A stretch of 42,044 bases of DNA, taken from positions 1 through 42,044 of the forward strand of contig JAAYVB010000039.1 in the NCBI GenBank assembly GCA_012517405.1, given 5' to 3'. Shown here one piece after another: positions 24,685 through 40,507 of the stretch. The first letter of the stretch is position 1, and the number at the start of each line of letters is the position of its first letter. Source of the DNA: Propionibacterium sp. (lineage in GTDB: Bacteria; Actinomycetota; Actinomycetes; Propionibacteriales; Propionibacteriaceae). Made by a program: the position numbers and the translations under genes. The notes beneath the pieces were generated by a model, which did not search any database, had not been told where the DNA came from, and saw only the letters and a program-made list of their open reading frames with translations.

Positions 24685-24734
24685 GTGCTGCGTTGAGCGG
24701 CACTGAGCATCTCGGGAGCAATCGGAGGAGTCCC

Positions 24735-25574
24735 ATGCCACCTCGCCAGCGCGTTCTGCGCCACGCCACCGTCATCGGATCCGAGCAGATCTCTCCGCAG
24801 CTGATCCGGCTGACATTCGACTCACCCGACCTGCGCGACGTCGATCTGCCTTTCACCGACCACTACGTGAAGCTGCTCTTCCCACCGTAGGACGCGCCCT
24901 ACACGCAGCCGGTCGATCCCGAGGAGACGGCCGAGTTCGCCGACCACCCGCCGGTCACCCGCACCTATTCGCTGCGTCATCGCGACCCGCTCAACGGCAC
25001 GATGGAGATCGATTTCGTCACGCACGGCGACACCGGACTGGCCGGCCCCTGGGCGCAACGGGCCAAGGCCGGCGACCGGATCAACTTCTTCGGCCCGGGC
25101 GGGGCGTGGGCTCCCACTGCCGACTACGACCACTTCGTTCTGGTGGGGGACGAGGCCGCCGCCCCCGCGATCTGCGCCGCCCTGGAGGAGTTGCCCGACG
25201 ATGCCACGGCCGTGGCATTTCTCGAAGTCGCAGATCACTCGTCCGTCTTCGACGTGCCGTCGGTGCCCGGCGTCGAGATTGTCTGGGTCTTCCGGGAGGG
25301 CGCACCCTACGGGCTGAAGCTCGCCCAGGCGGTGCGCGAGGCGGAGATCCCCGAGGGCAGGACCAGCTGGTTCGTTCACGGCGTCGCCGAAGTGGTCAAG
25401 GACCTGCGGCGGCATCTGTTCGTCGAGCGGGGCGTGGCCAAGCAGGATGCGTCGATCTCGGGCTATTGGCGCACCGGGATGACCGAGGACGGCTGGCAGT
25501 CGTCCAAACACGGGTTTGTGGCCGGCATGGAGGCCGAGGAGGCGGCCGCGCTCGGCCAGCCCGAATCGGACTGA
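24735..25574 (+). pseudogene. Siderophore-interacting protein with in-frame amber codon
   Basis: The ATG at 24,735 follows a GGAGGAG ribosome site. The frame encodes 279 residues of the SIP/ViuB family but is interrupted by TAG at 24,888-24,890 (codon 52), in a position reading FPP-stop-DAPY. A single G-to-T change of GAG would explain it. Family motifs lie on both sides: TVIGSEQISPQLIRLTFDSP before; VTRTYSLRHRDPLNGTMEID (flavin binding), VLVGDEAAAPAICAAL (nicotinamide side) and ISGYWRTGMTEDGWQ after. The family uses NAD(P)H and FAD to reduce ferric siderophores in the cytoplasm. Both halves keep normal codon use, so the mutation is recent, or the codon is read through, or it is a sequencing error. 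Confidence 0.85.
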
Positions 25575-25585
25575 CGGCCAGCGCG

Positions 25586-26539
25586 TCAGATCATTGCGGC
25601 GTGGATGGCGTCGATAGTCTCCAGAGTGTGCAGTGTCCTCTGCTGATCGGGGGTCGGGTCGGCCCCGGCGACCAGTTCGGCGAACCGCTTGATCTCGAAT
25701 GCCATGTTCGCCGGTGAGAGATCGATCTTCTGGGATTCGGACTTGCCGTCCAGGTAGGTGACCACGAGTTCGCGGGGGGCCGCGATCCGGTCGAAAGTCA
25801 GGGTCGCAAGCTCGCCCTGGATCTCGCACGGCCGGTCGGATGCGGTGATCTTCGAATAGGACAGGTCGACGACCATGCCCGGATAGCGGGCCAGCACGGC
25901 TCCCGCACCATCGACACCCGATCCGACGGTCACCTTTGCTGCGCTCACCGACTGCGGGGCGCCGAAGAGGTCCACCATCATCGATACGCAATAGACCCCG
26001 ATGTCATACAGCGCTCCCCCGGCGAGCTTGGGGTCGAAGATGTTCACGGATTGTCCGGCGAGCACCAGGTCGTAGCGGGACGACCGCTGTGAGTAGGCCA
26101 GTGAGGCCCGGCGGATCTGTCCGAGGTCGGGTAGCAGGGACCGGAGCGCTGAGGTGCCCGGATCGTAGGCGTTGCGCATGCCTTCGAAGATCACGACCCC
26201 ATGTTCTGCCGCGGTGTCCAGCAGCGCCGAGAATTCGGCGGCGGTGGGGGCTGCGGGCTTCTCCAAGAAGACATGCTTGCCTGCATCGATCGCTCGCAGT
26301 GCCTGCTCGTAGTGGGCACCGTTCGGGCTGGCGACGTAGACGGCGTCGACATCGTCCGACCCCAGCATCGTGTCCAGGTCGGTCCAGGTGACGTCGGTGC
26401 CGAAGGCGGTCGCGGCCTTCTGAGCGGTTTCCGGGCTGCGGGAGTAGACCCCGGCCAGCGCGACCTGCGGAACCTGGTCCATGGCATCGACGAATTGGTA
26501 GGTGATCCTGCTGGTGCCGATCGTGGCAATACGAATCAT
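25586..26539 (-). CDS. Gfo/Idh/MocA-family oxidoreductase
   Basis: 317 residues, ATG at 26,539. An N-terminal Rossmann fold (MIRIATIGTSRITYQFVDAM) is followed by the family motif HVFLEKPAAPTAAEFSALLD, where E-K-P carries the catalytic-site lysine. The C-terminal alpha/beta domain (GGALYDIGVYCVSMMVDLFG) has the conserved D-x-G-x-Y. Such enzymes oxidise or reduce sugars, inositols or related compounds with NAD(P); the substrate is not evident. The gene is convergent with the SIP gene, stops 11 bases apart, and divergent from the exporter gene on the other side. It is complete. Confidence 0.92.
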   Translation of the reverse strand: MIRIATIGTSRITYQFVDAMDQVPQVALAGVYSRSPETAQKAATAFGTDVTWTDLDTMLGSDDVDAVYVASPNGAHYEQALRAIDAGKHVFLEKPAAPTAAEFSALLDTAAEHGVVIFEGMRNAYDPGTSALRSLLPDLGQIRRASLAYSQRSSRYDLVLAGQSVNIFDPKLAGGALYDIGVYCVSMMVDLFGAPQSVSAAKVTVGSGVDGAGAVLARYPGMVVDLSYSKITASDRPCEIQGELATLTFDRIAAPRELVVTYLDGKSESQKIDLSPANMAFEIKRFAELVAGADPTPDQQRTLHTLETIDAIHAAMI

Positions 26540-26699
26540 GACTGAACTTTACGGCAACCGCGCGGTCTCAGCTGGCTCGTCGAGGTGGGCCGACGAGCAG
26601 CAGCGCCGACCGTGGCAGATTCGGCACCGAAGATCCTGCATGATCCAGACTGCGAACGGGCCCGCTGAGGGAGTTCGCCCCAGCGCGTAGGGTGTGCCG

Positions 26700-27896
26700 G
26701 TGAGCAAACGTGTTGGCCTGCAGACGACGATCATCGTGGCGATGCTGTCGATGATCGGACCTTTCACCATTGATTCCGTCTTCCCAGCATTTGCACGCAT
26801 CGGGGTACAGTTCGGCGCCTCGGATGCCGCTCTTCAGCAGATCACCAGCATCTATCTGTTCAGCTACGCCTTCGCGAGTCTGTTCCACGGCCCGATCTCC
26901 GATTCGGTCGGACGCAAGCCCGTCATGGTTGCGGGCATGGCCGCCTTCACGCTCGCCTCGATTGGCTGTGCCCTGGCCCCCAGCCTGGCCGTGCTGCTGG
27001 TCTTCCGGGCGGTTCAGGGCATCTTCGCGGGCGCCGCCCAGATCATCTCCCGGGCGCTTGTCCGTGATCTCCATGACGGCTGGCAAGCGCAAAGAGTGAT
27101 GGCTCAGGTCTCGATGATCTTCGGTATCGCGCCCGCGCTGGCACCGGTGGTCGGCGGCTGGCTGCTGGCGATTGGCGACTGGGAAGTCATCTTCTTCTTC
27201 CTGACCGGCTACGCCGCACTGCTGCTGGCTCTGATCACCTTCGGGCTGCCCGAGTCTCACCCCGAAGAGAAAAGGACGCCGTTGCAGATGGGCCCGATCT
27301 TCGCCAACATGCGCAATGTGGCCGCGGACGGTCCGTTCGCGCGGCTGGCGTTCGCGTCGTCGCTCGGCTTCTCCGCGCAGTTCCTCTACATCGCCGGTGC
27401 ACCGATCTTCATCGTCCGGCTTCTCGGGCTGGGCGAACGAGATTTCTGGGTTTTCTTCGTACCGATGATCACCGGCATGATTCTCGGCTCCTACGTGAAT
27501 TCGCGGCTGGCCGAATGGGGGCATTCTCAGAAGGTGGCGAGCATCGGGCTGGCCATCATGTTGGGAGCGATTGCGCTGAATCTGGGCCTCACGTCGTCAC
27601 CACTGGCCACCCAGCTGCCCTGGCCGATCGTCGGCCCCGCGCTGATCGCCTTCGGCATGTCGCTGGCCTTCCCGATCCTGCAGTTGACGATGCTCGATTT
27701 GTTCCCCGAGAAACGTGGCACGGCCGCGTCCTTGCAGAGTTTCGTCTCGTTGCTGCTCAACGCACTCATCGCGGGGGTCGTCATCCCGGCGGTCTCGGCG
27801 AGCGTCTTCTCAATGGCGCTGGCCAGCGCCGTCTTCGGTGTCACCGCGGCGGGGTTGTGGGCTTGGCATCTGCTGGTTGCGCGGCGGGTGGCGTGA
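26700..27896 (+). CDS. Bcr/CflA-like MFS drug exporter
   Basis: 398 residues from the GTG at 26,700, chosen because TAGGGTG upstream is a fair ribosome site; a GTG two codons earlier (26,694) is the alternative. Twelve helices are visible. Blocks typical of the Bcr/CflA (DHA1) group are FTIDSVFPAFARIGVQFGAS, GPISDSVGRKPVMVAGMAAF (loop 2-3 motif) and VFRAVQGIFAGAAQIISRAL. Members export drugs such as bicyclomycin, or sulfonamides, using the proton gradient; the real substrate is unknown. It is divergent from the oxidoreductase, with 160 bases between. It is complete, with no sign of decay. Confidence 0.88.
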   Translation: MSKRVGLQTTIIVAMLSMIGPFTIDSVFPAFARIGVQFGASDAALQQITSIYLFSYAFASLFHGPISDSVGRKPVMVAGMAAFTLASIGCALAPSLAVLLVFRAVQGIFAGAAQIISRALVRDLHDGWQAQRVMAQVSMIFGIAPALAPVVGGWLLAIGDWEVIFFFLTGYAALLLALITFGLPESHPEEKRTPLQMGPIFANMRNVAADGPFARLAFASSLGFSAQFLYIAGAPIFIVRLLGLGERDFWVFFVPMITGMILGSYVNSRLAEWGHSQKVASIGLAIMLGAIALNLGLTSSPLATQLPWPIVGPALIAFGMSLAFPILQLTMLDLFPEKRGTAASLQSFVSLLLNALIAGVVIPAVSASVFSMALASAVFGVTAAGLWAWHLLVARRVA

Positions 27897-27964
27897 GGCG
27901 GGTCTGGGGCTGAAGGGGTGCTACTCGCCGTCCCCGGCTAACGCAACGCGCCGAAGATTCCATC

Positions 27965-28972
27965 TCATTGTGAACGGCCGTTGCTCTCCCTCGGGGGCTG
28001 CGGCCGCATGAAGCGGGATGCCCAAGCGAGTGCTCCCGCGCCCGCCGCGGTGGCGGCAAGCCCGGCCGGGAGCAGCCAGCCGGACCCGCTGCCGGGCGAG
28101 GTGGAGTCCGTGGATCGAGGGGACGGGCTCGATCGTGCGGATGCCGGGGTGTGGCCGGCAGGTGTGGGGTCGGGCGTCGGCAGGGGCACAGTCTGCTCCG
28201 TTGGGACGGAGGCGACGCTCGGCGTTGGCGCTTGGCTGGGTTGGGACGCCGCGACCAGTGCCCGAGCATCGGGCCACAACTGTGCGCGCACCTGCGGATA
28301 CAGTGCGTCCCCGGGGCAGGTCGTCTGTGACATATCGCGATGCCCGGCGATCGGATCGGTCGCCACCTCGGTGCCTGCCGGCCACAGTGTTGAACCGCGC
28401 GATACGAATCGCACCTGGCTGCCCTCGCTGAGGTCGATTCGGTAGGTCGCGGCCTGCCAAGCCAACAGGTGCGCGGCGGCCTCCATCGCCTCCGGGCTGG
28501 GCTCGATCGATGAGAAGTCTCCGATGAAGCAGCAGAGCACTGCGAACCCCTGACTGCCGCCGGTGGCGTCGCCCTTTACGGGCGAGGTCAGGCTTCCTTG
28601 GCGCCCCTCCCACAGCCCACCGAACGGGTCGACGAAGAAGTTGTAGGCCACGTCAGGCCAACCCTTCGTTTGAGTGTGGTAGTCGAAGAAACTGCGGATC
28701 CGTCCCGGAATCTGGTCGGGCGTGTCCCCGTTCGGGCTGGCCGAGTGGTGGACGAGCAGAAAACGGGCGTCACCTGACTCTTCTGCTTCCAGCTGACCGA
28801 TCGGTGCACGGCCTGCGGCCCAATCATCACGAGGATGAATGAAAGGCGCGTCAAGAGGGGGCGATGCCACCGCCGGACGCGCCAGCCCGCTGGCCAGCAC
28901 CGCCGATGCCCCAGCGACCAGGACCGTGCGCCGGCTCAGCCGCGTGTTCAGCCAACCTGGCGTGGATAGCAA
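27965..28972 (-). CDS. Secreted N-acetylmuramoyl-L-alanine amidase (PGRP/amidase_2)
   Basis: 335 residues from a TTG at 28,972; GAGAGGCGGG upstream is its ribosome site. Residues 11-35 are a twin-arginine-like signal (RLSRRTVLVAGASAVLASGL). The catalytic domain has the zinc ligands in FLLVHHSASPNGD (H75 or H76), DPIAGHRDMSQTTCPGDALY (His and Cys), and the GGLWEGRQGS segment. It is followed by a Pro/Ser/Thr-rich linker and a C-terminal hydrophobic stretch (LLPAGLAATAAGAGALAWAS) with a basic end, so the enzyme is probably membrane-anchored outside the cell. It cleaves the amide bond between muramic acid and the stem peptide (family knowledge). Its start lies 25 bases inside the preceding gene, so translation is coupled. 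Confidence 0.9.
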   Translation of the reverse strand: MLSTPGWLNTRLSRRTVLVAGASAVLASGLARPAVASPPLDAPFIHPRDDWAAGRAPIGQLEAEESGDARFLLVHHSASPNGDTPDQIPGRIRSFFDYHTQTKGWPDVAYNFFVDPFGGLWEGRQGSLTSPVKGDATGGSQGFAVLCCFIGDFSSIEPSPEAMEAAAHLLAWQAATYRIDLSEGSQVRFVSRGSTLWPAGTEVATDPIAGHRDMSQTTCPGDALYPQVRAQLWPDARALVAASQPSQAPTPSVASVPTEQTVPLPTPDPTPAGHTPASARSSPSPRSTDSTSPGSGSGWLLPAGLAATAAGAGALAWASRFMRPQPPRESNGRSQ

Positions 28973-29892
28973 CTGCCGCCCGCCTCTCTGCCGAAGGTGC
29001 TGCAGATCGCCGTCGCCGAGTCACGAGAGCCGTACCCAGTAACGCCGAGAGCCCAATAGCCGCCGTTGAGGCCAGGAATGGCGTCCGAGTCGATCACCGA
29101 GATCTTCGGGCCGTACCCAGCCATCCCAGCGGCACGCGCCTGCGCGGAGGCCAGGGTGTTCTCGTTCTTGGGCAGGCTCTCCAGGATGGTGATCCACGTG
29201 CCGCTCGGCAGCGATGTCACCGCCTGGGCGGTCGACGTTGTCGGCTGTCTCTGGCTTGACGATTGGGACGACGGTGGGTTGGTCATGTGCGTCGGGGCTG
29301 GGGGCGCCGCAGTCCGCGCGGGGTTGCTGGACGCGTTGTCGGTCGCGGACGGCGCCGGCGCGATGGCGATCCAAGGATTCGGGCCCCAGATGCCGGCGGC
29401 CACCATGATCGCTCCGGCGATCAGCAAGACGGCTGCGACACCCACGATGACCAGCGCGAACTGCTGGGCGCCCTTGGGGCGCGAGCCGTACTGCACACCG
29501 ACGGGCTGGGATACGTAGTAGGCGGGGGCACTGGGGGGCTGATCGGCCGGGTACTGAGTGCCATATTGCGAAGAACCGTGGGATGAGGCGGGGTAGGACG
29601 AGGAGACTGGCGCCGAACTCCAGGATCCGGGCCCGGGCGGAGGCGGCGGCGGAGGTGGCGGCGGGGCCGTGGAGTAGGAAGGCCCGGGCGCGGCCTGCAG
29701 CGTCGCGTCAGGGCCGAAGCCGGGAATGATCGGCAGGTCCGGGTCGGTGTCGGCCAGAGCCGGGTCGAAGGACGCAAACGCGGCCGGACTGAAACTCGTG
29801 GTCTGGGGCGCCTCGTCCGCCGAGAGCCCGCAACGCGTGCAAATCCCTTGGGCCACCGCCGCCCCACACCAGTTGCATGCTTGCTCCGCCAT
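28948..29892 (-). CDS. Zinc-ribbon, Pro-rich, single-pass protein with SPOR-like end
   Basis: 314 residues; the ATG at 29,892 has a GGGGGAGA ribosome site, although the frame is open further upstream. Residues 6-21 are a zinc ribbon with four cysteines (CNWCGAAVAQGICTRCG). A disordered region with a run of eleven prolines follows, then one membrane helix (FALVIVGVAAVLLIAGAIMV). The C-terminal 80 residues (WITILESLPKNENTLASAQA and GGYWALGVTGYGSRDSATAI) resemble a SPOR domain, which binds peptidoglycan strands lacking stem peptides. Such strands are products of amidases, and the next gene in the operon is an amidase. I infer that this protein guides or senses the amidase. Confidence 0.75.
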   Translation of the reverse strand: MAEQACNWCGAAVAQGICTRCGLSADEAPQTTSFSPAAFASFDPALADTDPDLPIIPGFGPDATLQAAPGPSYSTAPPPPPPPPPPGPGSWSSAPVSSSYPASSHGSSQYGTQYPADQPPSAPAYYVSQPVGVQYGSRPKGAQQFALVIVGVAAVLLIAGAIMVAAGIWGPNPWIAIAPAPSATDNASSNPARTAAPPAPTHMTNPPSSQSSSQRQPTTSTAQAVTSLPSGTWITILESLPKNENTLASAQARAAGMAGYGPKISVIDSDAIPGLNGGYWALGVTGYGSRDSATAICSTFGREAGGSCYPRQVG

Positions 29893-30225
29893 CGTCTCCC
29901 CCGTCAGACGTTTCCCCTTGTGCCGACAATAGTCGGCCGGGAATGGTGCTGACTGCTGAGGCGTGGATTGCGGACGAAAGGTCCGCGCACGGGCCTGAAC
30001 GCCAGCCAGCTGAACAAGCTTCTCGGCGGCATGCGCGGAGTGAATATGCCGGCGTTTCTCTTTCTCCTTGCTTCTGCTCGCGCTACCCATTGGGCGCCGT
30101 CTATGTGGCGTCCTCAGTTGCGCGAGCATTTGCACGCATCGTCCTCCCATCCAGGCCGAGCAGGATGAATGGCTCGGTAAGGGCCCGCAGCTCCTCATGC
30201 GGGGGCACCCAGTGGGGCTTCGCAC

Positions 30226-30273
30226 GGGGTGAGTTTCTCCGGTACCCCGCGTGACGGCCGACTGATTGAGTAG
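30226..30273 (+). promoter_or_regulatory. LRV-family upstream element, copy 1
   Basis: 48 bases beginning GGGGTGAGTTTCTCCGGTAC and ending GACTGATTGAGTAG, 31 bases before the ATG at 30,304. Two more copies precede two paralogous genes at the same distance. The remainder of the gap 29,893-30,225 shows no gene, only shadow frames. The element may be a promoter or a regulator site. Confidence 0.75.
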
Positions 30274-30303
30274 AGTCGAATCGCCGAGAGAGGAAACCAA
30301 ACG

Positions 30304-31761
30304 ATGACGTTCCACAACGAAGGCGAAGCCCTGGCTGCATTGATGAGCGGCGGAGCCAGCCCCGAAGACCTTCGCGAAATCGTTACCGGCTATCCCCACT
30401 TGAGAGCTGCCGTGACCCTCTATCCGGCGACAGACACGGCCCTACTGGGCTGGCTTTCGGACCTCGGCGACCCCGCAGTCGCTCAAGCACTCGCCTCCAG
30501 ACAACGACCCCAACCACCGCAACCAACGCCCCCACCCCCACCCCCACCAGCGAGCAAATATGTGCAGACCACTGAGCAGCGCAGGAGTCGCCGCCAACTC
30601 ATACCGGCGATCGTCGCAGTGACCGTCGTGCTGGCGGTAGTCGCCACGATAATCGGATACCAGCGACTAACCGCGCCGCACCCCGCAACCCAGGTCATCG
30701 ACACCATCCGCACTGGCAACGGCGCCACCCCGCCGGTAATCGCCCCAGACGGCACGCTCTACGTAGGCAATTTGGGCGAGAGTACGGTATCGGTAATCAC
30801 CGGCAACCACGTCACTGCCACCATCCCCGTCGGCGCAACTCCTTGGGTAGCTGTGGCAGACGACGGCACCGTCTACGTAGTCAACCGCGATGACGACACC
30901 ATCTCGGTGATCAGCGACAACCACGTCACCGCCACCATTCCCGTCGGGAATGACCCCTGTCTGCCTGCGATAGCACCCGCCGGCACCGTCTACGTGTCCA
31001 ATTTCGGCGACGACACGGTATCGGTGATCAACGGCAACCGCCTCACCGCCACCATCCCCGTCCGCAAGAATCCGGAGTATCCGGTGATAGCTCCAGACGG
31101 CACCGTCTACGTTCTCAGTGTCGATGACCGAACCGTGTCGGTGATCAGCGGCAACCGCTTCACCGATGTCATCATCACCGGAGATCACCCTGACTTGCCG
31201 GTGATTGCTCCCGACGGCACCCTCTACGTGGCCAACACCGGCGACAACACCATATCGGTGATCAAAGACAAGCACCTCACCGCCACCATCCCCGTCGGCA
31301 AGGGCCCTTCCCTACCGGTGATCGCGCCGGACGGAACCGTCTACGTGACCAGCGCCGGTGACGGCACCGTATCGGTCATCAGAGGCAACGACGTCACCGC
31401 CACCATCCCCGTCGGCAACGACCCTATGCCGCCGGTGATAGCGCGAGACGGCACCGTCTACGTGGGCGACGGCTACAACGATGACGGCATTAACGACACC
31501 GAGCGCACGGTGTCGGTGATCAGAGGCCATGACGCCACCGCCACCATCCCCGTCGGCAAGCGCCCCTCGCGGCCTGTGGCGGCGCCCGACGGCACCATCT
31601 ACGTGGCCAATGCCGGCGACAGCACCGTATCGGTCATCAGCGGCAACCACGTCACCGCCACGATCCCCGTCGGCGACAACCCTTGGTTACCAGTGGTGGC
31701 GGCCGACGGATCCGTCTACGTTGCCAGCCCCGGGGGGGGAACCGTATCGGTTCTCGGTTAA
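30304..31761 (+). CDS. LRV-domain membrane protein with nine-repeat beta-propeller
   Basis: 485 residues; AGAGAGGAAACC precedes the ATG. Residues 1-66 are a variant leucine-rich-repeat (LRV)-like helical domain (ASPEDLREIVTGYPHLRAAV, YPATDTALLGWLSDLGDPAV). A proline-rich linker and one helix (about 99-118, preceded by RRSRR) place the N-terminus inside and the rest outside the cell. Then come nine repeats of about 39 residues, each like PDGTVYVxNxGDxTVSVI and TATIPVG, forming a YVTN-type beta-propeller. Repeat 7 has an 8-residue insertion. Propellers bind protein or sugar partners; the ligand is unknown. The near-identical repeats also give DNA-level direct repeats of about 117 bases. A G8 tract lies near the end, in frame. 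Confidence 0.85.
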   Translation: MTFHNEGEALAALMSGGASPEDLREIVTGYPHLRAAVTLYPATDTALLGWLSDLGDPAVAQALASRQRPQPPQPTPPPPPPPASKYVQTTEQRRSRRQLIPAIVAVTVVLAVVATIIGYQRLTAPHPATQVIDTIRTGNGATPPVIAPDGTLYVGNLGESTVSVITGNHVTATIPVGATPWVAVADDGTVYVVNRDDDTISVISDNHVTATIPVGNDPCLPAIAPAGTVYVSNFGDDTVSVINGNRLTATIPVRKNPEYPVIAPDGTVYVLSVDDRTVSVISGNRFTDVIITGDHPDLPVIAPDGTLYVANTGDNTISVIKDKHLTATIPVGKGPSLPVIAPDGTVYVTSAGDGTVSVIRGNDVTATIPVGNDPMPPVIARDGTVYVGDGYNDDGINDTERTVSVIRGHDATATIPVGKRPSRPVAAPDGTIYVANAGDSTVSVISGNHVTATIPVGDNPWLPVVAADGSVYVASPGGGTVSVLG

Positions 31762-31822
31762 GCCGCCGGATCACTCGAGCGGAGTTCAGGAGATATGCAC
31801 GCAGACTGCTGGATCCACGGCA

Positions 31823-31870
31823 GGGGTGAGTTCCTCCGGTACCCCGCGCCCCGGCCGACTGATTGACTAC
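31823..31870 (+). promoter_or_regulatory. LRV-family upstream element, copy 2
   Basis: Differs from copy 1 at about six of 48 positions and begins GGGGTGAGTTCCTCCGGTAC. It lies 31 bases before the ATG at 31,901 of the broken paralogue. Confidence 0.75.
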
Positions 31871-31900
31871 CACTGCGTGGCGAGCGAGGGAAGGCAGAGA

Positions 31901-32271
31901 ATGTTCCGAAATAAGGACCAAGCTCGCGCCGCGCTCAGGCCGGCACAGCCGCCCCAGAACACCTTGATGAGATCGTCACCACCCATCCACAGCTACGCAC
32001 CACAGTGGAGGCATATCCGGCAACCTACCCTGCTCTGTTGGACTGGCTCGCCAAATCGGCTGTCCCTAGCACGACCGGAACACTCGGCGCCTCAGAAAGA
32101 ACCATCAAACAGACAACCACATCAGCGCATTCCAATCGCCCAGAGACTCAGGGGTTCTCTCCTGGACCTCTGCCCGCTGAAGCACCGTTCGGCGATCGCA
32201 CCCCCGGTCAGCAACACGGCAAGGCTGATCCGGAGTCCCCGCCAGTTACGAACGGCGCACCATGGGCATGA
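31901..32271 (+). pseudogene. LRV-domain paralogue, frameshifted and truncated
   Basis: The ATG at 31,901 (MFRNKDQARAAL) aligns with the start of the intact paralogues. A frameshift at about 31,935-31,950 moves the rest into another frame: TAAPEHLDEIVTTHPQLRTT, then VEAYPATYPALLDWLAKSAV. These are the same LRV-like blocks in the same order. After the LRV domain there is only a polar Ser/Pro/Gln-rich tail ending at 32,271; the membrane helix and the propeller are missing. It keeps the upstream element and spacing of its relatives, so it derives from the same duplication. The next small gene starts at its stop. Confidence 0.75.
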
Positions 32272-32501
32272 AGTGGGTCGGCGCGGCGGTCGCGGTGTTC
32301 GTCCTTTGCTCCATCATCCAGGCGATGGGCGACTCCGACATGTTTAGCACCTCCTACTATGAGCCCGATAGCCCCATCCTCGATCTGCTGATGAACCTCA
32401 CGTTCTTCCCGGGCTGGTTCGCGACTGTCGCGTTCGCCTTCAAAGGCATCAGCACTCTCCTCAGCCCCGATCCCGAGGTGCGCTCAAGTCATCACGGCTA
32501 G
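32268..32501 (+). CDS. Small membrane protein
   Basis: 77 residues from the ATG at 32,268, which overlaps the stop of the LRV stub (ATGA); an ATG two codons earlier (32,262) is the alternative. Two hydrophobic segments are visible: VGAAVAVFVLCSIIQAMG near the N-terminus and LLMNLTFFPGWFATVAFAFK in the middle. The end is polar. I do not recognise it. The position, exactly coupled to the frame of a broken LRV gene, suggests either a partner of the former LRV protein or a shuffled membrane part of it. Confidence 0.5.
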   Translation: MKWVGAAVAVFVLCSIIQAMGDSDMFSTSYYEPDSPILDLLMNLTFFPGWFATVAFAFKGISTLLSPDPEVRSSHHG

Positions 32502-32600
32502 TGACGCCGCTGACTAGGTGCGGACGCGGAAACACCCAGAGCGTTGGCGAATCGCACCTTCTGGATCAGGGTCACACCATTGAACGTACCGTCGCGAGGC

Positions 32601-32648
32601 GGGGTGAGTTTCTCCGGTACCCGGACAGGCGAATGACTGGTTGACTAC
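32601..32648 (+). promoter_or_regulatory. LRV-family upstream element, copy 3
   Basis: Begins GGGGTGAGTTTCTCCGGTAC, identical to copy 1 over the first 22 bases, then diverges and ends TGACTGGTTGACTAC. It lies 31 bases before the ATG at 32,679. Confidence 0.75.
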
Positions 32649-32678
32649 TGCCACGCGCTGAGGGAAGGGAACACAACG

Positions 32679-34223
32679 ATGACGTTCGGCAACGAGGGCG
32701 AAGCCCTGGTCGCGCTGACGACCGGGAGGGCCACTCCCGAAGACCTCCGCGAAATCGTCACAAGCTATCCCCAGCTGAGAGCCAGCGTTGCCCTCTACCC
32801 CGCCACCGATGCACCCCTGCTCCACTGGCTCTCAGACCTCGGCGACCCGGCCGTGGCCCTCGCACTGGCCAGACGAACCACATCATCAGCAACACCTGAA
32901 TCCTGGAAAGCCGCCGAGCCAGCCTTCCGGGGCGGTGAAGCGCAGCCAGAGGCCCCTGGGGAGACAACGCCTGAATCCCCTCCGGTTGGCGAGCCGACCA
33001 GCCCGTCTCGACGGCTGAAAAAGAGACCGCTGCTCATTGTCGCCCTCGTCATCGCCATCGTGCTCGCAGCAACCGGATATCAACTCGTCCCTCGGCTGAT
33101 CGCTGTCCCGCACCCGGCAACTCAGGTCGTCGCAACCATCCCAGTAGACAGTCTGTTCACGACTCCGGTAGTGACGCCCGACGGAACTGTTTATCTCACC
33201 GGTCGCCTGAGCGGCGAAGTCACAGTGATCAAGGGCACTCAGATCATCAGCAGCTTCAACTTCGGCGACATGCTGACGACTCCGGTGGCGGCGCCAGATG
33301 GAACTATCTACCTGGCAAGAACGTTGGACAAATCGGTGATCGGAATCAGCGGCGCCCATGTCACCAACAAGATCGCTGTCGGAATGACTCCCCAGGAGGT
33401 GGCGGTGGCACCTGATGGAACCATCTACGTCACCCACAGCTCCGAAGCGACAGTGTCGGTGATCAACGGCACCAAGGTCACCGCCACCATCCCCGTCGGC
33501 AACGAACCCCAGGCGCCAGTAGTGGCAGCTGACGGAACCGTGTACGTGCCGAACGCCGGCGACGGTACGGTATCAGTGATCAAGGGCACCCAAGTCGCTG
33601 GCACGGTGACCATCGGCACCGATCCCCACGATCTCGAGAAATCCAGCGCCATCGAAGATCTCATCAACAAGATATTCGCGCCTGACCTGGTCGTGACACC
33701 TGACGGAACCGCTTATGCAACCAGCGCGAGAGATAGGACAGTCTCGGTGATTGATGAGGCGCGGGTCACTGGCACTATCCCCGTCGGCAACAGGCCCACC
33801 ACGCCAGCGGTCGCACCCAACGGAGCCGTCTACGTACCTAACTGGGACGATGGGACAGTAACAGCGATCAACGACAACAAGGCCACCACCATTCCCGTTG
33901 GCAAGAGCCCAGCGACGCCAGCGATCGCACCCAACGGGACCGTCTACGTGCCCAACTCTGGCGAGGGAACAGTCTCCGTGATCAAACGCACCAAGGTCAT
34001 TGCGACGATTCCCACTGGCACCAAGCCCGGCGTGCCAGCAGTCGCGCCCGATGGAACGGTCTACGTCCCCGATGAATCCGACGGGACAATAACAGTCATT
34101 TCCGGCACCAAGCTCGTCGCCACCATTCCCGTCGGCGCTCTGCCATATACGCCGGCGGTAGCACCCGACGGCACCGTCTACGTGCCAGACATCGGCGATG
34201 GGACCGTATCGGTTCTCCGCTGA
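32679..34223 (+). CDS. LRV-domain membrane protein with nine-repeat beta-propeller
   Basis: 514 residues, paralogue of the 485-residue protein upstream. GAGGGAAGGG precedes the ATG. The LRV-like domain (residues 1-66: ATPEDLREIVTSYPQLRASV and YPATDAPLLHWLSDLGDPAV) is about 75 percent identical by eye. A Pro/Glu-rich linker replaces the polyproline one; the helix is at about 117-136 after RRLKKR. Nine propeller repeats follow; repeat 5 has an insertion of about 18 residues (KSSAIEDLINKIFAPDLVV). The repeats are more diverged from each other than in the upstream paralogue. Topology: LRV inside, propeller outside. The RCC1 paralogue starts 45 bases after its stop and is probably co-transcribed. 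Confidence 0.85.
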   Translation: MTFGNEGEALVALTTGRATPEDLREIVTSYPQLRASVALYPATDAPLLHWLSDLGDPAVALALARRTTSSATPESWKAAEPAFRGGEAQPEAPGETTPESPPVGEPTSPSRRLKKRPLLIVALVIAIVLAATGYQLVPRLIAVPHPATQVVATIPVDSLFTTPVVTPDGTVYLTGRLSGEVTVIKGTQIISSFNFGDMLTTPVAAPDGTIYLARTLDKSVIGISGAHVTNKIAVGMTPQEVAVAPDGTIYVTHSSEATVSVINGTKVTATIPVGNEPQAPVVAADGTVYVPNAGDGTVSVIKGTQVAGTVTIGTDPHDLEKSSAIEDLINKIFAPDLVVTPDGTAYATSARDRTVSVIDEARVTGTIPVGNRPTTPAVAPNGAVYVPNWDDGTVTAINDNKATTIPVGKSPATPAIAPNGTVYVPNSGEGTVSVIKRTKVIATIPTGTKPGVPAVAPDGTVYVPDESDGTITVISGTKLVATIPVGALPYTPAVAPDGTVYVPDIGDGTVSVLR

Positions 34224-34267
34224 TTCGGCTACTGGATGGTACTTCCCCACGATCAACAAAGGTGGTC

Positions 34268-35696
34268 ATGACTATTCACGATGAGGTCGACGCTTCCACA
34301 CTGCTGATGACGGGCCGAGCCAGTCTGGAGGATCTGCGAGAAATCGTCTCCAACTACCCACATCTGAGGCCGCTTGTGGCGGCCTACCCCGGCACGGACG
34401 AGGCGCTGCTGGGCTGGCTCGCCAGCCTCGGTGATCCCGTGGTGAATCAAGCCCTCGTAGCACGAAGACCGACGGACGCAATACCGGTTCTAACCCCATC
34501 ATCGTGGTCTGCATCCGCGCCTGCCACCTCACAGCAGCGAAAGCCGGCGAAGCTGCCGCGCGTCATCGGCCTCGGCCTCATCGTCCTCGCGGTGGCGCTG
34601 GCCGGCGTCTTCTTCGTCCCGCGATTGCTGACCAGGGCCCCGGTGCTGGCCGCTGGGAGCAGCCACACCTGTGTGCTCACGTCTGATGGCACGGTCAGTT
34701 GCTGGGGCGACCCACCGACGTTCGGGCACAACGACGAGAACGGCAAGACCACGCCGAGACCGATTCTGGAGCTTACCGATGCGGTCTCGGTGTCCGCGAA
34801 CAGCGAGACCTGCGCAGTCCGCGCTGACGGCACGGTCAGCTGCTGGGGGCCGCGTCTTTCCGATATCAGCACCGGCGGAACCCATACGCAGCTCACCGCG
34901 ATACCGATGCAAGGCATCACCGGAGCGGCAAAGATCGCCGCCGGCGTCGAGCACTTCTGCATGGTGATGGACAACGCTTCGGTGTCGTGCTGGGGGGGAC
35001 AACCAATACGGGCAGGTGGGCAATGGCACGGAGATTCGCGACAGCGCCATGGGCAGCGCCGCATCGGCTCAGGTCGTCGGCGTCGCCGATGTGACCGCGA
35101 TCTCCGCCGGCAGCAGCCACACCTGCGCAGTCAGCAAAGACAACACCGTGAAGTGCTGGGGCTACAACCTTCATGGTCAGCTCGGCGACGGTTCGACCAC
35201 CAACCGGACCACCGCAACCCCAGTCGCTAATCTGCCTGCCGTCTCGGCCATCGCCGCTGGAGCCTGGCACACCTGTGCGCTGGGCAAAGACCGCACCGTG
35301 GAATGCTGGGGCCGCAACGACAGCGGGCAACTGGGCAATGGCACGACCACGTCAAGTCCGAGCCCCACCGCTACCCAAGTGGCCGGGCTGACAGACGTCA
35401 AGGCGATCGCTGCCGGCGGCAGCCACACCTGCGCGATCAGAAAGGATCGCACGGTCGTCTGCTGGGGCGACAATCAGTCGGGCCAACTGGGAGACGGCAC
35501 CCTCACCAGCAGCACCACTCCAGTGCCGGTATCGAACCTCACCGGCGTGGTAGGCATTGCCGCGGGCGGGTCACACACCTGCGCGGTCCGCAAAGACCGC
35601 ACCGTCGTCTGCTGGGGAAGCAACAGTGCTGGGCAACTCGGCACAGGCGACAACACCAGCAGCCCGGTGCCGGTGGAAGTCACCGGGCTGCGCTAG
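34268..35696 (+). pseudogene. LRV-domain membrane protein with RCC1 repeats, G-tract frameshift
   Basis: Starts at the ATG at 34,268 (AAAGG five bases upstream). Residues 1-65 are the same LRV-like domain (ASLEDLREIVSNYPHLRPLV), then a linker and one helix (about 99-118). Seven RCC1-type repeats follow, each with AxGSSHTCAVxxDxTVxCWG and two cysteines. In the third repeat, TGCTGG is followed by a G tract of seven (34,992-34,998). Six would keep the frame (C-W-G-D-N-Q-Y-G-Q); seven shift it, and the rest continues in the next frame to 35,696. About 475 residues if repaired. Either a phase-variable tract, a mutation or a sequencing error. No upstream element of its own, so it probably shares the promoter of the gene before. 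Confidence 0.8.
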
Positions 35697-36374
35697 GAAC
35701 AGGTCCGAGCTTGCGGGGCCGAGCCCCAGGGCATACTCGATGTCCGCCGGTGATGCATCCGGTCCAAGCCCAGCGTCCTGCAGGAACCAGGTCAACTTCG
35801 CCCGTACGCATTCCAACCGGTCGTACGCGGTCTTCGCCGAGATCCCCAGCCGCGCAGCCAACCCCTGCCAGGATTCACCGCGGGCCCGAGCGTGCAGCAC
35901 CTGAAGCTGCCGCATCGTCAATCGCGGGGGAGCGCCCCGGCGGCGGACCAGTTCCCAAGCCTCATCCATCGCGGCCGCGATGGCAATGCCACCCCTGGCA
36001 ACCGTCAGAAAGGCCTCTTCGCCGGCGACCAGTGAATCGGACTTGCTCACCAACCCGGTAGCTCCCGCTGCCAAGCAACGCGCAAGCATAAGAACCCTGC
36101 GCTCAGCGCTGAAAACACACACCCGGTAGCCCAAGGCAATCAGCGCCTCGATTGCTGTCGGTCCCGACAGAGCCCCATCGGCCGCGCCGTCGTGACTTAT
36201 GTCGAGGACCACCAGATCGCATTGAATCCCACAATCAAGAAGCTCCTCCACGGTAGCGAATGTCCCGACAACGACAAGCGAGGGAAAGCAGCAGTGAAAG
36301 CTCGCTCGCACCTGGGTGCAGCAGTCGACGATGACTACCGTGGGTCCGCACCCGCTCTGTTCGGGGCCGCGCAT
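35571..36374 (-). CDS. NarL-type response regulator
   Basis: 267 residues; the ATG at 36,374 has an AGAGGAG ribosome site, which decides against an upstream in-frame Met. Residues 11-115 form a receiver: TVVIVDCCTQ (one of the two acidic residues is Cys), CDLVVLDIS with the phosphoacceptor Asp at about 58, and GLVSKSDS with the Lys at 111. Residues 150-197 are a LuxR-type helix-turn-helix (LTMRQLQVLHARARGESWQG, LAARLGISAKTAYDRLECVR). No kinase gene is near. The last 42 codons lie antisense to the last RCC1 repeat, a 126-base 3' overlap. The altered acidic pocket suggests weak or phosphate-independent control. A regulator of the LRV cluster is a fair guess. Confidence 0.8.
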   Translation of the reverse strand: MRGPEQSGCGPTVVIVDCCTQVRASFHCCFPSLVVVGTFATVEELLDCGIQCDLVVLDISHDGAADGALSGPTAIEALIALGYRVCVFSAERRVLMLARCLAAGATGLVSKSDSLVAGEEAFLTVARGGIAIAAAMDEAWELVRRRGAPPRLTMRQLQVLHARARGESWQGLAARLGISAKTAYDRLECVRAKLTWFLQDAGLGPDASPADIEYALGLGPASSDLFLAQPGDFHRHRAAGVVACAELPSTVASPADDGAVFADRAGV

Positions 36375-36506
36375 TCGCTCTCCTCTGGTCAACACTGAGC
36401 AACACAACTGCCGGACTCGATCGTCATCGTCCGACTGGGTCGCGGGACGATGACGCTTCGCCATCGTCCCGCGATATTTCGGGGTGGGTGACGACTCTTT
36501 GGTCGT

Positions 36507-36779
36507 CTATTCAAAGAACAGGAGGTAAACCGCCCAACCGATCAGCAGGAATGAAATGAGTTCCCAGCCCTCGAATTCGCCAGTGAAAAGCGCTCCGAGC
36601 ATCACAATCCCAATCAGCAGCAACACGAGCCCCGCTCCCTTCACCCACACGGTGTGAACCAGGTTGCTCGTCTTCTCGGCAACTGCCCCGGCCTTCGTAT
36701 CGCTCTCCCGCAGCGTTTCCCAGCCCCAGGTGCAGGCGAAGATGGCGCCCAGCGCCAAGATCCCTGTCAGCCACGCCAT
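36507..36779 (-). CDS. Small two- to three-helix membrane protein
   Basis: 90 residues. Hydrophobic segments: MAWLTGILALGAIFACTWGW at the N-terminus, GAGLVLLLIGIVMLGALFTG in the middle and LISFLLIGWAVYLLFFE at the C-terminus, with a polar loop (ESDTKAGAVAEKTSNLVH) after the first. No named family is recognised. It is the last of four closely spaced minus-strand genes and starts 7 bases after the preceding stop. Probably an inner-membrane component of the same unit. Confidence 0.65.
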   Translation of the reverse strand: MAWLTGILALGAIFACTWGWETLRESDTKAGAVAEKTSNLVHTVWVKGAGLVLLLIGIVMLGALFTGEFEGWELISFLLIGWAVYLLFFE

Positions 36780-36786
36780 GGCGGAT

Positions 36787-37071
36787 TCACCCGTCGATGT
36801 TGCTGATCGGATCCGACTCGCTCCCGACTGTGTTGCAGTACAGCTTGGCCGACTGTTGCGAAAGCAGCACCTCTCCTCCGGAGGGATCCGAGTTGCCCTT
36901 TTCCTCGAAGAAGTTGCGGATCACTTGCTTCTGATCGCTCGCGCTCAACTGCAGATAGTCTCCGCAGGTCGTATTGCCGCCTCCCAGGCCAGCGCCGCAA
37001 CCGCTCAGCGTCATGACGAGCAGAAGGCCGGCCAGCGCCGGAGCCGATCGGATTGTCCGTGCGCGTCCCAT
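36787..37071 (-). CDS. Small lipoprotein
   Basis: 94 residues from the ATG at 37,071, one base after the stop of the gene before it (TGAGATG), so translation is coupled. MGRARTIRSAPALAGLLLVM and TLSGC form a lipoprotein signal with lipobox L-S-G-C; Cys 25 or so would be lipidated. The mature part (NTTCGDYLQLSASDQKQVIR, then LLSQQSAKLYCNTVG) has two cysteines far apart, probably a disulfide, and resembles small HdeA-like folds seen in other actinobacterial lipoproteins. That resemblance is from memory and weak. Located outside the membrane. Confidence 0.75.
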   Translation of the reverse strand: MGRARTIRSAPALAGLLLVMTLSGCGAGLGGGNTTCGDYLQLSASDQKQVIRNFFEEKGNSDPSGGEVLLSQQSAKLYCNTVGSESDPISNIDG

Positions 37072-37072
37072 C

Positions 37073-37312
37073 TCAGTTCTGCCTATCATTGCGCTCGCGT
37101 TCGGCTCGCACCTTCTGCGCGAGTTCATTGGCTGATTGATCGCTCTGATTTCGCTTGACCCACCAGGGGATCGCCGCAAGCACTGCGCCAACCAGAATGA
37201 CCATGATGGGGGCCGCAACGACATCCGACGGCGTGCTGTACCAGAAGATGATGCCGATCAGGACGACGACTGTGCCGCCAATTTCCATGCCGCGGAGTGT
37301 TTCCGGAGTCAT
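37073..37312 (-). CDS. Small two-helix membrane protein
   Basis: 79 residues. Two helices (MEIGGTVVVLIGIIFWYS and VVAAPIMVILVGAVLAAIPW) are separated by a short loop and followed by a charged cytoplasmic tail (KRNQSDQSANELAQKVRAER). Its ATG overlaps the stop of the preceding gene (ATGA at 37,309-37,312). No family recognised. Part of the four-gene unit. Confidence 0.7.
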   Translation of the reverse strand: MTPETLRGMEIGGTVVVLIGIIFWYSTPSDVVAAPIMVILVGAVLAAIPWWVKRNQSDQSANELAQKVRAERERNDRQN

Positions 37313-37716
37313 GATGCAATGTCCTCTCGTTCAATGATGGTGCACCGTGCTGTCGGATCGGCAGCCCGAACGACTTGTTCCAGCGCACCCATGAAGCGCC
37401 GGTATTCTCCGTATCCACCGATCAGCTTGGGCCCGACCGGGATGAGGTAGACGGTGGTCTGACTCGTCATGTAGTCGTCCAGTCTCGTCGACGCACTGGT
37501 GCGCACGCCGTTACCGGTGGCATGCACCGAAAAAGTGAGATTCGTGATTCCAAACGCGTTTTTCACCGCTGCGCTGAATCCGTCAGTGTGCTCATCCGCC
37601 AAATGCACGCCCGGCTGCGTCTCAGCGGTCTGCTTCGAAAGGTCGAGTAACCGATCCACCGGCAATGCCGTATCGATCTCGATCCTGGAATCGTGGTACT
37701 TGTGTTTCTTCGCCAT
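37309..37716 (-). CDS. Hypothetical soluble protein, first gene of a four-gene unit
   Basis: 135 residues, ATG at 37,716 after AAAGGCG. MAKKHKYHDSRIEIDTALPV at the start is followed by alternating strands (NLTFSVHATGNGVRTSASTR, TTVYLIPVGPKLIGGYGEYR) and a helix (FMGALEQVVRAADP). It could be a small alpha/beta or START-like fold; I do not recognise a family. It has no signal peptide. It overlaps the next gene by four bases and leads the operon of two membrane proteins and a lipoprotein, divergent from the FHA-ABC transporter. Confidence 0.65.
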   Translation of the reverse strand: MAKKHKYHDSRIEIDTALPVDRLLDLSKQTAETQPGVHLADEHTDGFSAAVKNAFGITNLTFSVHATGNGVRTSASTRLDDYMTSQTTVYLIPVGPKLIGGYGEYRRFMGALEQVVRAADPTARCTIIEREDIAS

Positions 37717-38185
37717 GACTTCGCCTTTCTTCAGGACGGTTGGGGTCGTCCATTCGATTTGTTCAGCAAACTACGTTGTGACGGCCACACCGTCGATGGG
37801 CAGTCCTCCCCATGAGTCGACATCTGCGGCTCGAAGTCGCACATTCTCCGAGGATCGGTCCGCGAGCAACTTAGCAACGCCCAACTAGGTCGCTGACGCG
37901 ATAAGACGTACGAGTATGTATGACTCTGTCGTCCCGGAAATAGGCCGGTGAGATCACGCAGGACGCGCAACCAAGCGTTTGCAGGTGCAGGCCGGCTTCA
38001 CCCGCAACATCGCTGCGAGCGGCTCCGCAACCGCCTTGCATAGCGATATCGGCCGTACGAACCCGTATGAAGACCGAATCGTCAGCTGATCGAGCGAGTC
38101 TCAGCATCGGTGATACACGAAAGCCGATTGCCCCTGGCACCTTAGAATCTCTGCTAGAACCCCCACAGCGCCGAGAGCCGGAAAC
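37717..38185. other. Divergent intergenic region
   Basis: 469 bases between the four-gene unit (minus) and the FHA-ABC gene (plus). Open frames here have shadow composition and no ribosome sites. Both promoters must lie here, but I cannot assign -10/-35 pairs with confidence and see no clear dyad. Confidence 0.4.
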
Positions 38186-40507
38186 ATGCCAAACAACGTG
38201 GGCCTGATGCCCGTTGCAGCGGTCACCCTTGGAGGTACTACTCGCCATCTGTTCGCCGGGCAGTCACTGCGCATCGGCCGCGACCCCACATGCGATCTCG
38301 TGCCGACTGACCCCCGTACGTCGCGAGTGCATCTCGTCATCCAGGCCGACGCGGATGGTGATCTGGTCGTCCAGGACATGGACAGCGCGAACGGCACCTT
38401 TCACCGCGACACCCGCGTGTCAGCCTGCCGGGTTCTCGATGACGTCACCTTCGGGCTGGGCAACCCCGACGGCGACCAGCTGACCATTCAACTCAACCGG
38501 CCCACGGGTCAGCGGATCTCCGCGGCGCAACCCGCCCACGAGGACTACCAAGCCAGTCCGGCGCCGGGCCACGCCGTGCTTGTCGATGCTGATCAGACAG
38601 CTCTCGGCATCGACATCGCGATCGGTCGCGCGCCGGACAACACTATTGTCCTGGACGATCCGCTGGTCTCCCGCTATCACGCACGCCTCACGCCCACCGC
38701 CGGCGGCTACCGAGTCACCGACCTCAGCAGCCTCAACGGCACCCAGCTCAATGGCCGGGACATCGTGGGTGGAGCCACTCTCACGCCACGAGACCGGCTC
38801 ACCATCGGACGCACCGTGCTCAGGCTGACCGGCGACGAGATTGTCCGCGCGGACGAAGCGCTCGGCGGCGCCCTGATCGCCAACAACCTGTCCTTCACAC
38901 TCAAGGACGGCAAGAGCCTGCTGAGCAACATCAGTTTCACGGTGCCTTCCGGCAATCTGGTGGCGGTGATCGGACCTTCCGGCGCCGGCAAGTCGACGCT
39001 GCTGCGTGCGATCACCGGCTCGCAGCCGGCCACCGAAGGCGAGGTCGTCTATCAGGGCCAAGACCTGTATCGCAGCTTTGCGAGCCTTCGGCAGCTGATT
39101 GGGGTCGTGCCCCAAGACGACGTGGTCCACCGTCAGCTGAGCGTCCGCCGGGCACTCGGCTACGCCGCCGAACTCCGGCTGCCCAGCGACTACAGGAAGT
39201 CGGCCCGCGAGCGTGAGGTCTCGCGCGTCATCACCGATCTGAAGCTGGACGCTCATCAGGACACCCAGATCTCTCGGCTGTCCGGTGGCCAGCGCAAGCG
39301 CACGTCCGTCGCGATGGAACTGCTCACCCAACCACCACTGCTGCTACTCGACGAGCCGACCTCCGGGCTGGATCCGGGTCTCGACCTGGACGTCATGAGG
39401 TTGTTGCGTGAGCAGGCCGACGGTGGGCGCACGGTGCTGGTCGTCACGCACAGCACCGACAACTTGGACATCTGCGATCAGGTACTCGTCCTCGCCCCGG
39501 GCGGAATGGTCGCCTACTACGGGTCGCCCTCCGAACTTCTCGGCTACTTCGGATTCGATCGCTACGCATCGGTGTTCAGCGCCCTGGCCACCGACCCGCA
39601 GGGCTACGCGATGCACTGGGCGCAAACCCACGCGGTCCAACTGCCGCCGCCGGACGCCACTCCCCACCCGGTCGATGTCAGCCCGCCACGGCAACGCGTC
39701 TCGCGCCAGTGGAGCACGTTGATCCGACGTCAGCTGCGCATTATCGCTTCGGACCGTTCCTACGCGTTGTCGGCCGTACTCTTGCCGGTGATCATTGCCG
39801 CAATGACTCTGGTGATCCCCGGGGAAACCGGCTTCGGCAAGCCGCCGCCCGACAGCCTCGGCGAGCCCTCGCAGCTGCTGGTGATCATCACGGTCGGCGC
39901 GGCATTCATGGGTATGTCGGCGAGCATCCGTGAGCTGATCTCCGAGCGTCCGATCTTCTTGAGAGAGCGGACGGTCGGCCTGTCCCCGGTGGTCTATCTG
40001 TCGGCGAAGGTATGCGTCCTGTTCGCGATGACGCTACTGCAGAGCGCGATCCTGATCAGTGTGGTGCGACTAGGCAAACCAGGCCCGGACTCCTCGGTCT
40101 GGGCAGCTGATCCCACCTTCGAATTGTGGCTGGCCGCCTTCGGCACCTCGTTTGTATCTGCCCTACTCGGGTTGCTGCTGTCGGCCCTGGTCGGCACGGG
40201 CGAGCAGACGATGCCGGCGTTGGTCATCACGATCATGGCGCAGTTGGTATTTTGTGGTGGCTTGATCACTGTCACCGATCGCGGCGCCCTGGAGGTGGTT
40301 GCGGCGCTGTTCCCCAGCCGCTGGGGTTTCGCCCAAGCCGCGTCCACCATCGATCTGAGGTCGCTGAATCCGACGGTGCCCCCGGATTGGCTGTGGGAGC
40401 ACACGGTGAAGTCGTGGCTCACCGCCGCTGCAGCGCTGGCCGGCATTGGGACGATCACCCTGGTCCTGACCGCGATCAAACTCATCCGGCAACCCTCGAC
40501 AACCTAA
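38186..40507 (+). CDS. FHA-FHA-ABC transporter (Rv1747-like)
   Basis: 773 residues. Two FHA domains lie at about 8-102 (LRIGRDPTCDLVPTDPRTSR, with the G-R, S-R-x-H and N-G motifs) and 128-215 (IAIGRAPDNTIVLDDPLVSR, SSLNGTQLNG). The nucleotide-binding domain spans about 230-455: GPSGAGKST (263-271), LSGGQRKR (365-372) and LLLLDEPTSGLD (384-395). The last 260 residues have six helices of the ABC-2 type. Domain order is that of mycobacterial Rv1747, where Ser/Thr kinase phosphorylation of linkers or partners acts through FHA domains, linked to cell-wall glycolipids. All motifs are intact. The substrate here is unknown. Followed at one base by a serine hydrolase gene. Confidence 0.92.
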   Translation: MPNNVGLMPVAAVTLGGTTRHLFAGQSLRIGRDPTCDLVPTDPRTSRVHLVIQADADGDLVVQDMDSANGTFHRDTRVSACRVLDDVTFGLGNPDGDQLTIQLNRPTGQRISAAQPAHEDYQASPAPGHAVLVDADQTALGIDIAIGRAPDNTIVLDDPLVSRYHARLTPTAGGYRVTDLSSLNGTQLNGRDIVGGATLTPRDRLTIGRTVLRLTGDEIVRADEALGGALIANNLSFTLKDGKSLLSNISFTVPSGNLVAVIGPSGAGKSTLLRAITGSQPATEGEVVYQGQDLYRSFASLRQLIGVVPQDDVVHRQLSVRRALGYAAELRLPSDYRKSAREREVSRVITDLKLDAHQDTQISRLSGGQRKRTSVAMELLTQPPLLLLDEPTSGLDPGLDLDVMRLLREQADGGRTVLVVTHSTDNLDICDQVLVLAPGGMVAYYGSPSELLGYFGFDRYASVFSALATDPQGYAMHWAQTHAVQLPPPDATPHPVDVSPPRQRVSRQWSTLIRRQLRIIASDRSYALSAVLLPVIIAAMTLVIPGETGFGKPPPDSLGEPSQLLVIITVGAAFMGMSASIRELISERPIFLRERTVGLSPVVYLSAKVCVLFAMTLLQSAILISVVRLGKPGPDSSVWAADPTFELWLAAFGTSFVSALLGLLLSALVGTGEQTMPALVITIMAQLVFCGGLITVTDRGALEVVAALFPSRWGFAQAASTIDLRSLNPTVPPDWLWEHTVKSWLTAAAALAGIGTITLVLTAIKLIRQPSTT

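What the first reader, a model, noticed from the sequence alone, without database searches (positions are those of the whole stretch)
30226..34223. Identical 48-base element at a fixed 31-base distance from three LRV genes
Copies at 30,226, 31,823 and 32,601 are highly conserved (the first about 22 bases almost identical) while the gene bodies have diverged, and each ends exactly 31 bases before the ATG. This indicates selected shared regulation of a gene family, possibly a dedicated sigma factor or regulator site, and even the broken copy keeps it.
Basis: seen in the sequence. Interest (0 to 1): 0.7.

Follow-up and report, generated by a model that had tools for sequence, protein, structure and literature searches.

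The report
Shared switch site before LRV genes
Three neighbouring related genes in one bacterial strain carry nearly the same 22-letter DNA block exactly 78 letters before their start codons, kept far better than the genes themselves; it is likely a docking site for a gene regulator, predicted to be the one encoded just downstream.

Summary
The repeat is real but shorter than claimed. Block A (22 bp, GGGGTGAGTTYCTCCGGTACCC) is invariant at 21 of 22 columns in three copies, each starting 78 nt before an ATG; a weaker 13-bp block B follows at fixed spacing. The 48-mer is not identical. The best three-way match elsewhere in the aligned leader plus gene is 15/22, and the last 30 nt before the ATG are only 37-43% alike, so equal divergence after recent duplication does not explain it. 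The genome has no further copy. All four of its LRV_2 matches lie here; the fourth gene, 44 nt behind the third, lacks the block. A complete genome of the same species lacks the stretch. RNA folding, Rfam and sigma-70 scans are negative. The NarL/FixJ-like protein nearby has a narrow family. In 1 of 9 relatives with (partly) readable upstream DNA, 18 of 19 bases of copy 1's block region lie 31 nt before the kinase gene that precedes the orthologous regulator; that relative shares the window's recognition helix, the other eight do not. I favour an operator private to this array, with the local regulator as its likely but unproven reader. A dedicated sigma factor has no support.

The parts
30226..30247 (+). 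block A, copy 1
   Evidence: identical to copy 3, 21/22 to copy 2
30260..30272 (+). block B, copy 1
   Evidence: GACTGATTGAGTA
30304..31761 (+). LRV gene 1: LRV_2 domain, YVTN-type propeller repeats
   Evidence: PF25591 47.1 bits (cut-off 27); TIGR02276
31823..31844 (+). block A, copy 2 (one base differs)
31857..31869 (+). block B, copy 2
   Evidence: GACTGATTGACTA
31901..32271 (+). LRV gene 2, degraded: LRV_2 stretch out of frame with the ATG, no propeller found
   Evidence: (match 31924-32088, no stop inside, frame differs from ATG)
32601..32622 (+). block A, copy 3
32635..32647 (+). block B, copy 3
   Evidence: GACTGGTTGACTA
32679..34223 (+). LRV gene 3: LRV_2 domain, YVTN-type propeller repeats
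   Evidence: PF25591 44.2 bits; TIGR02276
34268..35230 (+). LRV gene 4: LRV_2 plus RCC1 repeats, no block A; presumed to be read from gene 3's promoter (inferred)
   Evidence: 44 nt after the stop of gene 3
35571..36464 (-). NarL/FixJ-like regulator, candidate reader of block A
   Evidence: GerE 20.1 bits (cut-off 23.5); UhpA-like 29.3 bits (cut-off 258); orthologue in G026 (53%) passes GerE

Best explanation
The 22-bp block A lies exactly 78 nt before the ATG of three LRV paralogues and is likely the operator of a local promoter module, predicted to be bound by the NarL/FixJ-like regulator encoded at 36464-35571 on the other strand. Shown: blocks A and B keep a fixed spacing to each other and to the ATG while the bases around them have diverged, and the module is confined to this array. 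Inferred: block B marks the core-promoter region, so block A would sit just upstream of RNA polymerase, as an activator site does. Inferred: the regulator switches the units together, and gene 4, 44 nt behind gene 3, is read from gene 3's promoter. Inferred: each duplication carried the module along with its gene, and selection then kept the module.
For: 21/22 invariant columns in block A against at most 15/22 in non-overlapping windows of the same alignment, and fixed spacings. Only three copies in the genome, all before LRV genes. The one LRV gene that lacks it is the closely packed one. The pattern GAGNTNCTCCGGTACCC has six exact matches in 198 family genomes: the three window sites, one in G206, and two in ORFs of G215 and G245; reversed control three. 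The G206 site lies 31 nt before the ATG of a HATPase gene (30.3 bits, cut-off 26.4) that directly precedes the orthologous regulator (54%). No site with 1 mismatch in G000, G181, G205 or G206. The recognition-helix segment ISAKTAxDRLE is shared by the window, G206, G205 and G216 only, of 15 aligned.
Against: Binding is untested. One G206 site is a sample of one and the pattern was chosen after seeing it. Eight other operons with at least partly readable upstream DNA lack the core (5-7 mismatches of 15), and three of them (G064, G253, G235) are cut by the locus end. G216 shares the helix but has no exact core in its genome, only TTCCGGTACC near its regulator. Block A is not found before the window's own regulator (best 9 and 11 mismatches). 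Regulator and LRV genes lie on different contigs in all 7 other genomes that have both. No sigma-70-like site. Copy 2 precedes a broken gene.
Confidence: 0.42

Rival explanations
1. Blocks A and B are a real, selected promoter/operator module, but another factor reads it (a regulator encoded elsewhere, or an alternative sigma factor), and the neighbouring NarL-like protein is unrelated to it.
For: Same conservation evidence. Regulator and LRV genes are unlinked in all 7 other genomes with both; block A is not before the window's regulator; 8 of 9 orthologous operons lack the core.
Against: Only three sites in the genome, beside one regulator gene; the G206 site is hard to ascribe to chance.
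Confidence: 0.34
2. The block is a leftover of duplication: the left edge is a duplication breakpoint, and exchange between copies (gene conversion) keeps the blocks alike without function.
For: Upstream of the block the copies are unrelated (10-16 of 60). Copies 1 and 2 are 42/48 alike in bases 1-48 but 114/201 in the LRV coding DNA, which suggests exchange. The broken copy keeps the block.
Against: The likeness stops at base 22, is low in 23-34 for copy 3 (4 and 3 of 12) and returns in 35-47; one conversion tract would not leave that pattern. A near-identical core in G206.
Confidence: 0.16
3. The block works as RNA: a leader hairpin or a short upstream reading frame.
For: GGGGU and ACCCC can pair in copies 1 and 2 (25-nt folds). 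A GTG at base 4 of the block opens a frame in phase with the ATG (read).
Against: The 81-nt leaders fold no better than shuffles (z 0.15, 0.99, 0.68); the 25-nt fold is different in copy 3. No Rfam match near a gathering score. The upstream frame stops early in copies 1 and 3 and runs on in copy 2, and the one change in block A alters an amino acid (read).
Confidence: 0.05

Closest known systems
NarL/FixJ-family response regulators and their operators (properties of the family recalled)
   Same: The candidate regulator has a receiver-like half and a LuxR-type helix-turn-helix; a site of about 20 bp upstream of a promoter fits a dimer (recalled).
   Different: Here it stands without a kinase gene beside it, and its receiver has VDC where 14 aligned orthologues have two acids or equivalents such as VDD/IDD. 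No binding data exist for it.
LRV_2 (PF25591) multi-gene arrays of related genomes of the same family
   Same: LRV_2 at the N-terminus, often in tandem arrays.
   Different: None of 45 examined loci of relatives has block A. Four other LRV-rich genomes show no comparable shared distal site. The best protein relatives of gene 3 are metagenomic P0001-P0003 (41-43% over the full length), whose upstream DNA could not be read here.

Membership tests
Operator of a NarL/FixJ-type regulator | A NarL/FixJ-type regulator is encoded nearby | tested here: met
   Window protein: GerE 20.1 bits, below the cut-off 23.5; its 53% orthologue in G026 has 24.1 bits, above it.
Operator of a NarL/FixJ-type regulator | The site recurs at the regulator's own or other target promoters | tested here: inconclusive
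   Core before the orthologous operon in G206 only, 1 of 9 readable; not before the window's own regulator.
Operator of a NarL/FixJ-type regulator | The regulator binds the site | not testable with these tools
   needs footprinting
Sigma-70-type promoter | Two consensus hexamers at 16-18 nt | tested here: not met
   0 found in 29800-34500, 0.9 expected in shuffles
Alternative (ECF-type) sigma promoter | Group-specific -35/-10 boxes and a cognate sigma gene | not tested
   compared by eye only; no match recognised
Structured RNA leader or riboswitch | Stable conserved fold, or a known family | tested here: not met
   z 0.15, 0.99, 0.68; no Rfam match near a gathering score
Dispersed mobile repeat (MITE, REP) | Copies scattered over the genome | tested here: not met
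   three copies, one strand, one locus

The most novel reading that the evidence does not exclude
A regulator that elsewhere stands behind its own kinase has lost that kinase and become the private switch of a strain-specific array of mosaic LRV-propeller proteins; the array grows by duplicating gene and operator together, and the operator code (a TCCGGTACC core read by an ISAKTAxDRLE recognition helix) can be read across genera from the regulator's own promoter.
Probability: 0.33. Interest if true: 0.5.

Novelty: new member of a known kind. Interest (0 to 1): 0.33.

Why it matters
If right, it gives a first handle on what controls LRV_2-propeller genes and a testable operator for a narrow NarL-like family. 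A search for 'leucine rich repeat variant' with 'Propionibacteriaceae' found 0 papers (the group name is my guess from gene content), and in the 10 papers listed of 109 the LRV term occurs 0 times. It would also show how a co-duplicated operator keeps a young gene array under one control. As biology it is a modest, local case of a familiar arrangement.

Tried and rejected
Regulon: the 19-mer at up to 3 mismatches in the own genome gives 6 further matches (3 in the reversed control), and all 6 lie inside an ORF of at least 100 aa. In 146 genomes (own included) at up to 2 mismatches 45 have a match; these sites were not checked against genes.

Public collections: no exact 20-mer in genome contigs; one viral match, inside an ORF on the other strand. 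Profile scans of genome and viral contigs gave 124 and 49 pattern stretches, none confirmed as a relative. A plasmid search gave 228 records, none covering 80% of the query; the ten listed are propeller-type or unnamed genes.

Block A before other LRV_2 genes: 45 loci of relatives, 300 nt each, best 7 mismatches of 22 (L062), then 8 (L058, L078, L091). Left out: L051 (partial match), L054 (no upstream), L077, L082, L088 (repeats). One search read minus-strand loci in the wrong orientation; one search replaces it. One search made only 30 loci, so many of its matches were seen only through the exact core search.

Other tandem LRV arrays: best shared 16-mer mean 11.0, 12.7, 11.5 and 10.4 of 16 for G242 (9 of its 10 matches used), G249 (4 of 6), G243 (3 of 3) and G026 (9 of 9), against maxima of 10.6, 12.3, 12.0 and 10.6 in 20 shuffles; so G242 and G249 slightly exceed chance. 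The window's four genes give 13.7 against 11.7.

Regulator loci: of 16 scanned for block A, L130 (G206) and L136 (G253, strand opposite to the regulator) beat their 30 shuffles, both at 6 mismatches. Exact CTCCGGTACC occurs, on the regulator's strand, in L130 only of 18 loci (17 genes).

Co-occurrence of regulator and LRV genes: 8 of 17 regulator genomes have LRV against 32 of 198 (hypergeometric 0.0017; 7 of 16 without the own genome, 0.005); not corrected for kinship, so given little weight.

Foreign contig: 22589-27902 is 99.5% identical to conspecific G181, so the contig is genuine to there; a chimeric join at 27902 is not excluded, and the assembly is listed with 5.43% contamination.

Papers: only listings with abstract starts were seen; none was opened and none is used as evidence.

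Full report
Observation. The window is a whole contig (42044 bases) of a 3.17-Mb genome in 46 contigs. At 30226, 31823 and 32601 a 22-bp block starts that is identical in copies 1 and 3 and differs at one base in copy 2; the ATG follows 78 nt after its first base each time. The wider 48 bases are not identical. Positions 23-34 vary (9, 4 and 3 of 12 alike for pairs 1-2, 1-3, 2-3), positions 35-48 are kept again (12, 11 and 13 of 14), and positions 49-78 are 11/27, 13/30 and 13/27 alike where aligned. The element is thus bipartite: block A (1-22), 12 variable bases, block B (35-47).

Chance and ancestry. With up to 3 mismatches there are 3 matches in the window against a mean of 0.00 in 100 shuffles. 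In the alignment of leader plus LRV coding DNA, block A has 21/22 three-way invariant columns and the best non-overlapping window 15/22. Coding identity is 149/200 (1-3), 114/201 (1-2), 117/199 (2-3); third codon positions of 1-3 are 38/68. Uniform divergence since duplication is therefore not a sufficient cause. Copies 1 and 2 are 42/48 alike in bases 1-48, more than their coding DNA would suggest, so exchange between copies is possible.

The genes. Copies 1 and 3 precede genes with LRV_2 (PF25591, above cut-off) and YVTN propeller repeats, with a hydrophobic segment between them (by eye). Copy 2 precedes an LRV_2 stretch that is out of frame with its ATG. A fourth LRV_2 gene (34268), with RCC1 repeats, starts 44 nt after gene 3 and has no block A. 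These four are all LRV_2 matches in the genome. The three with the block have 139 nt or more to the preceding gene; the closely packed one lacks it. That fits a promoter-associated site, by inference.

Distribution. Block B has three exact copies in the genome, each with block A. Block A's core has no other copy at 0 or 1 mismatch. The 20-mer has no exact match in genome contigs, from which the window's own genome may be left out. A complete genome of the same species, G181, is 99.5% identical to window 22589-27902, ending six bases after an MFS gene, and then carries other genes: an nSTAND1-WD40 protein, a sortase, a pilin-type LPXTG protein. Of 27903-42044 it has only matches of about 100 nt or less. 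The array thus lies in a strain-variable stretch whose right end is off the contig. Of 45 LRV_2 loci of relatives none has block A, and four other LRV-rich genomes show no comparable shared distal site.

What it is not. Folding energies of the leaders equal those of shuffles, no Rfam match comes near a gathering score, no sigma-70-like site is found, and it is not a dispersed repeat.

Who might read it. Among the ORFs of the stretch that I searched the only transcription regulator is the NarL/FixJ-like protein. Its family is narrow: 24 homologues at E<=0.001 with the 8000 best candidates scored, and 17 of 198 family genomes at E<=1e-20. In G026, G103 and G206 a HATPase-type gene directly precedes it (26.0, 31.0 and 30.3 bits, cut-off 26.4); in the window I found none beside it. 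In G206, GAGATTCTCCGGTACCCCG, 18 of 19 bases of copy 1's positions 6-24, lies between a DUF6788 ORF (259 nt away, divergent) and the kinase ATG, 31 nt after the 17-base core. The core GAGNTNCTCCGGTACCC occurs six times in 198 genomes: the three window sites, G206, and two sites inside ORFs (G215, G245); the reversed control has three. In G000, G181, G205 and G206 no site has 1 mismatch, and 2-mismatch sites do not exceed the control except by little in G206 (11 at 2 mismatches against 15 control; the others 8, 8 and 12 against 23, 29 and 27), that is, none exceeds it. By hand, three chance sites in about 1.2 billion bases (both strands) would fall within 100 nt before one of the 16 other regulators about 4 times in a million; allowing for a pattern chosen afterwards, perhaps 1 in 10,000.

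Recognition helix. In 15 aligned regulators (L139, L141 and L142 of 18 sought did not enter the alignment) ISAKTAxDRLE is shared only by the window, G206, G205 and G216. G205's kinase start is off its contig. G216 has no exact core but has TTCCGGTACC in a 17-base stretch 20-36 nt before a GTG that may start its regulator (4 mismatches of 15 to the core). Eight operons with at least partly readable upstream DNA (G064, G037, G061, G253, G235, G247; G026, G103) have no match better than 5 mismatches of 15, and their recognition helices all differ.

Against the link. Block A is not before the window's own regulator, and in all 7 other genomes with both, regulator and LRV genes are on different contigs, though many of these assemblies are in small pieces.

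Judgement. Block A is best read as an operator or activator site of a local promoter module that travels with duplicated LRV genes. The neighbouring regulator is its most likely single reader, at less than even odds. Known in kind, new in detail.

Noticed in passing
window 27903-42044: Strain-variable stretch: absent from the conspecific complete genome G181. Its FHA-ABC transporter gene (38186), the hydrolase-like gene behind it and 41459-41929 have counterparts in the same order in G004 (72% and 66% DNA identity), partly in G001, which have no LRV_2 match.
   Followed up: partly
window 24521-24617: A stretch of about 90 nt that recurs at 12 other places in G181 at 75-83% identity: a dispersed repeat family of this species.
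   Followed up: no
window 34268-35696: The LRV-RCC1 gene falls into two overlapping frames that meet near a run of seven G at about 34991-34998; a homopolymer sequencing error or a real break.
   Followed up: no
window 31901-32501: Degraded LRV copy: LRV stretch out of frame with the ATG, followed by a 79-aa ORF (32262-32501) without a Pfam family above cut-off.
   Followed up: partly
L148 (G242:C69): Two neighbouring LRV genes (matches at 2726 and 4470) share the last 20 nt before the ATG and the first codons, but not the DNA further upstream: the reverse of the pattern in the window.
   Followed up: no
L185 (G216:C45): A regulator with the same recognition helix as the window's, also without a kinase ORF found beside it, with TTCCGGTACC just upstream of its possible start.
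   Followed up: partly
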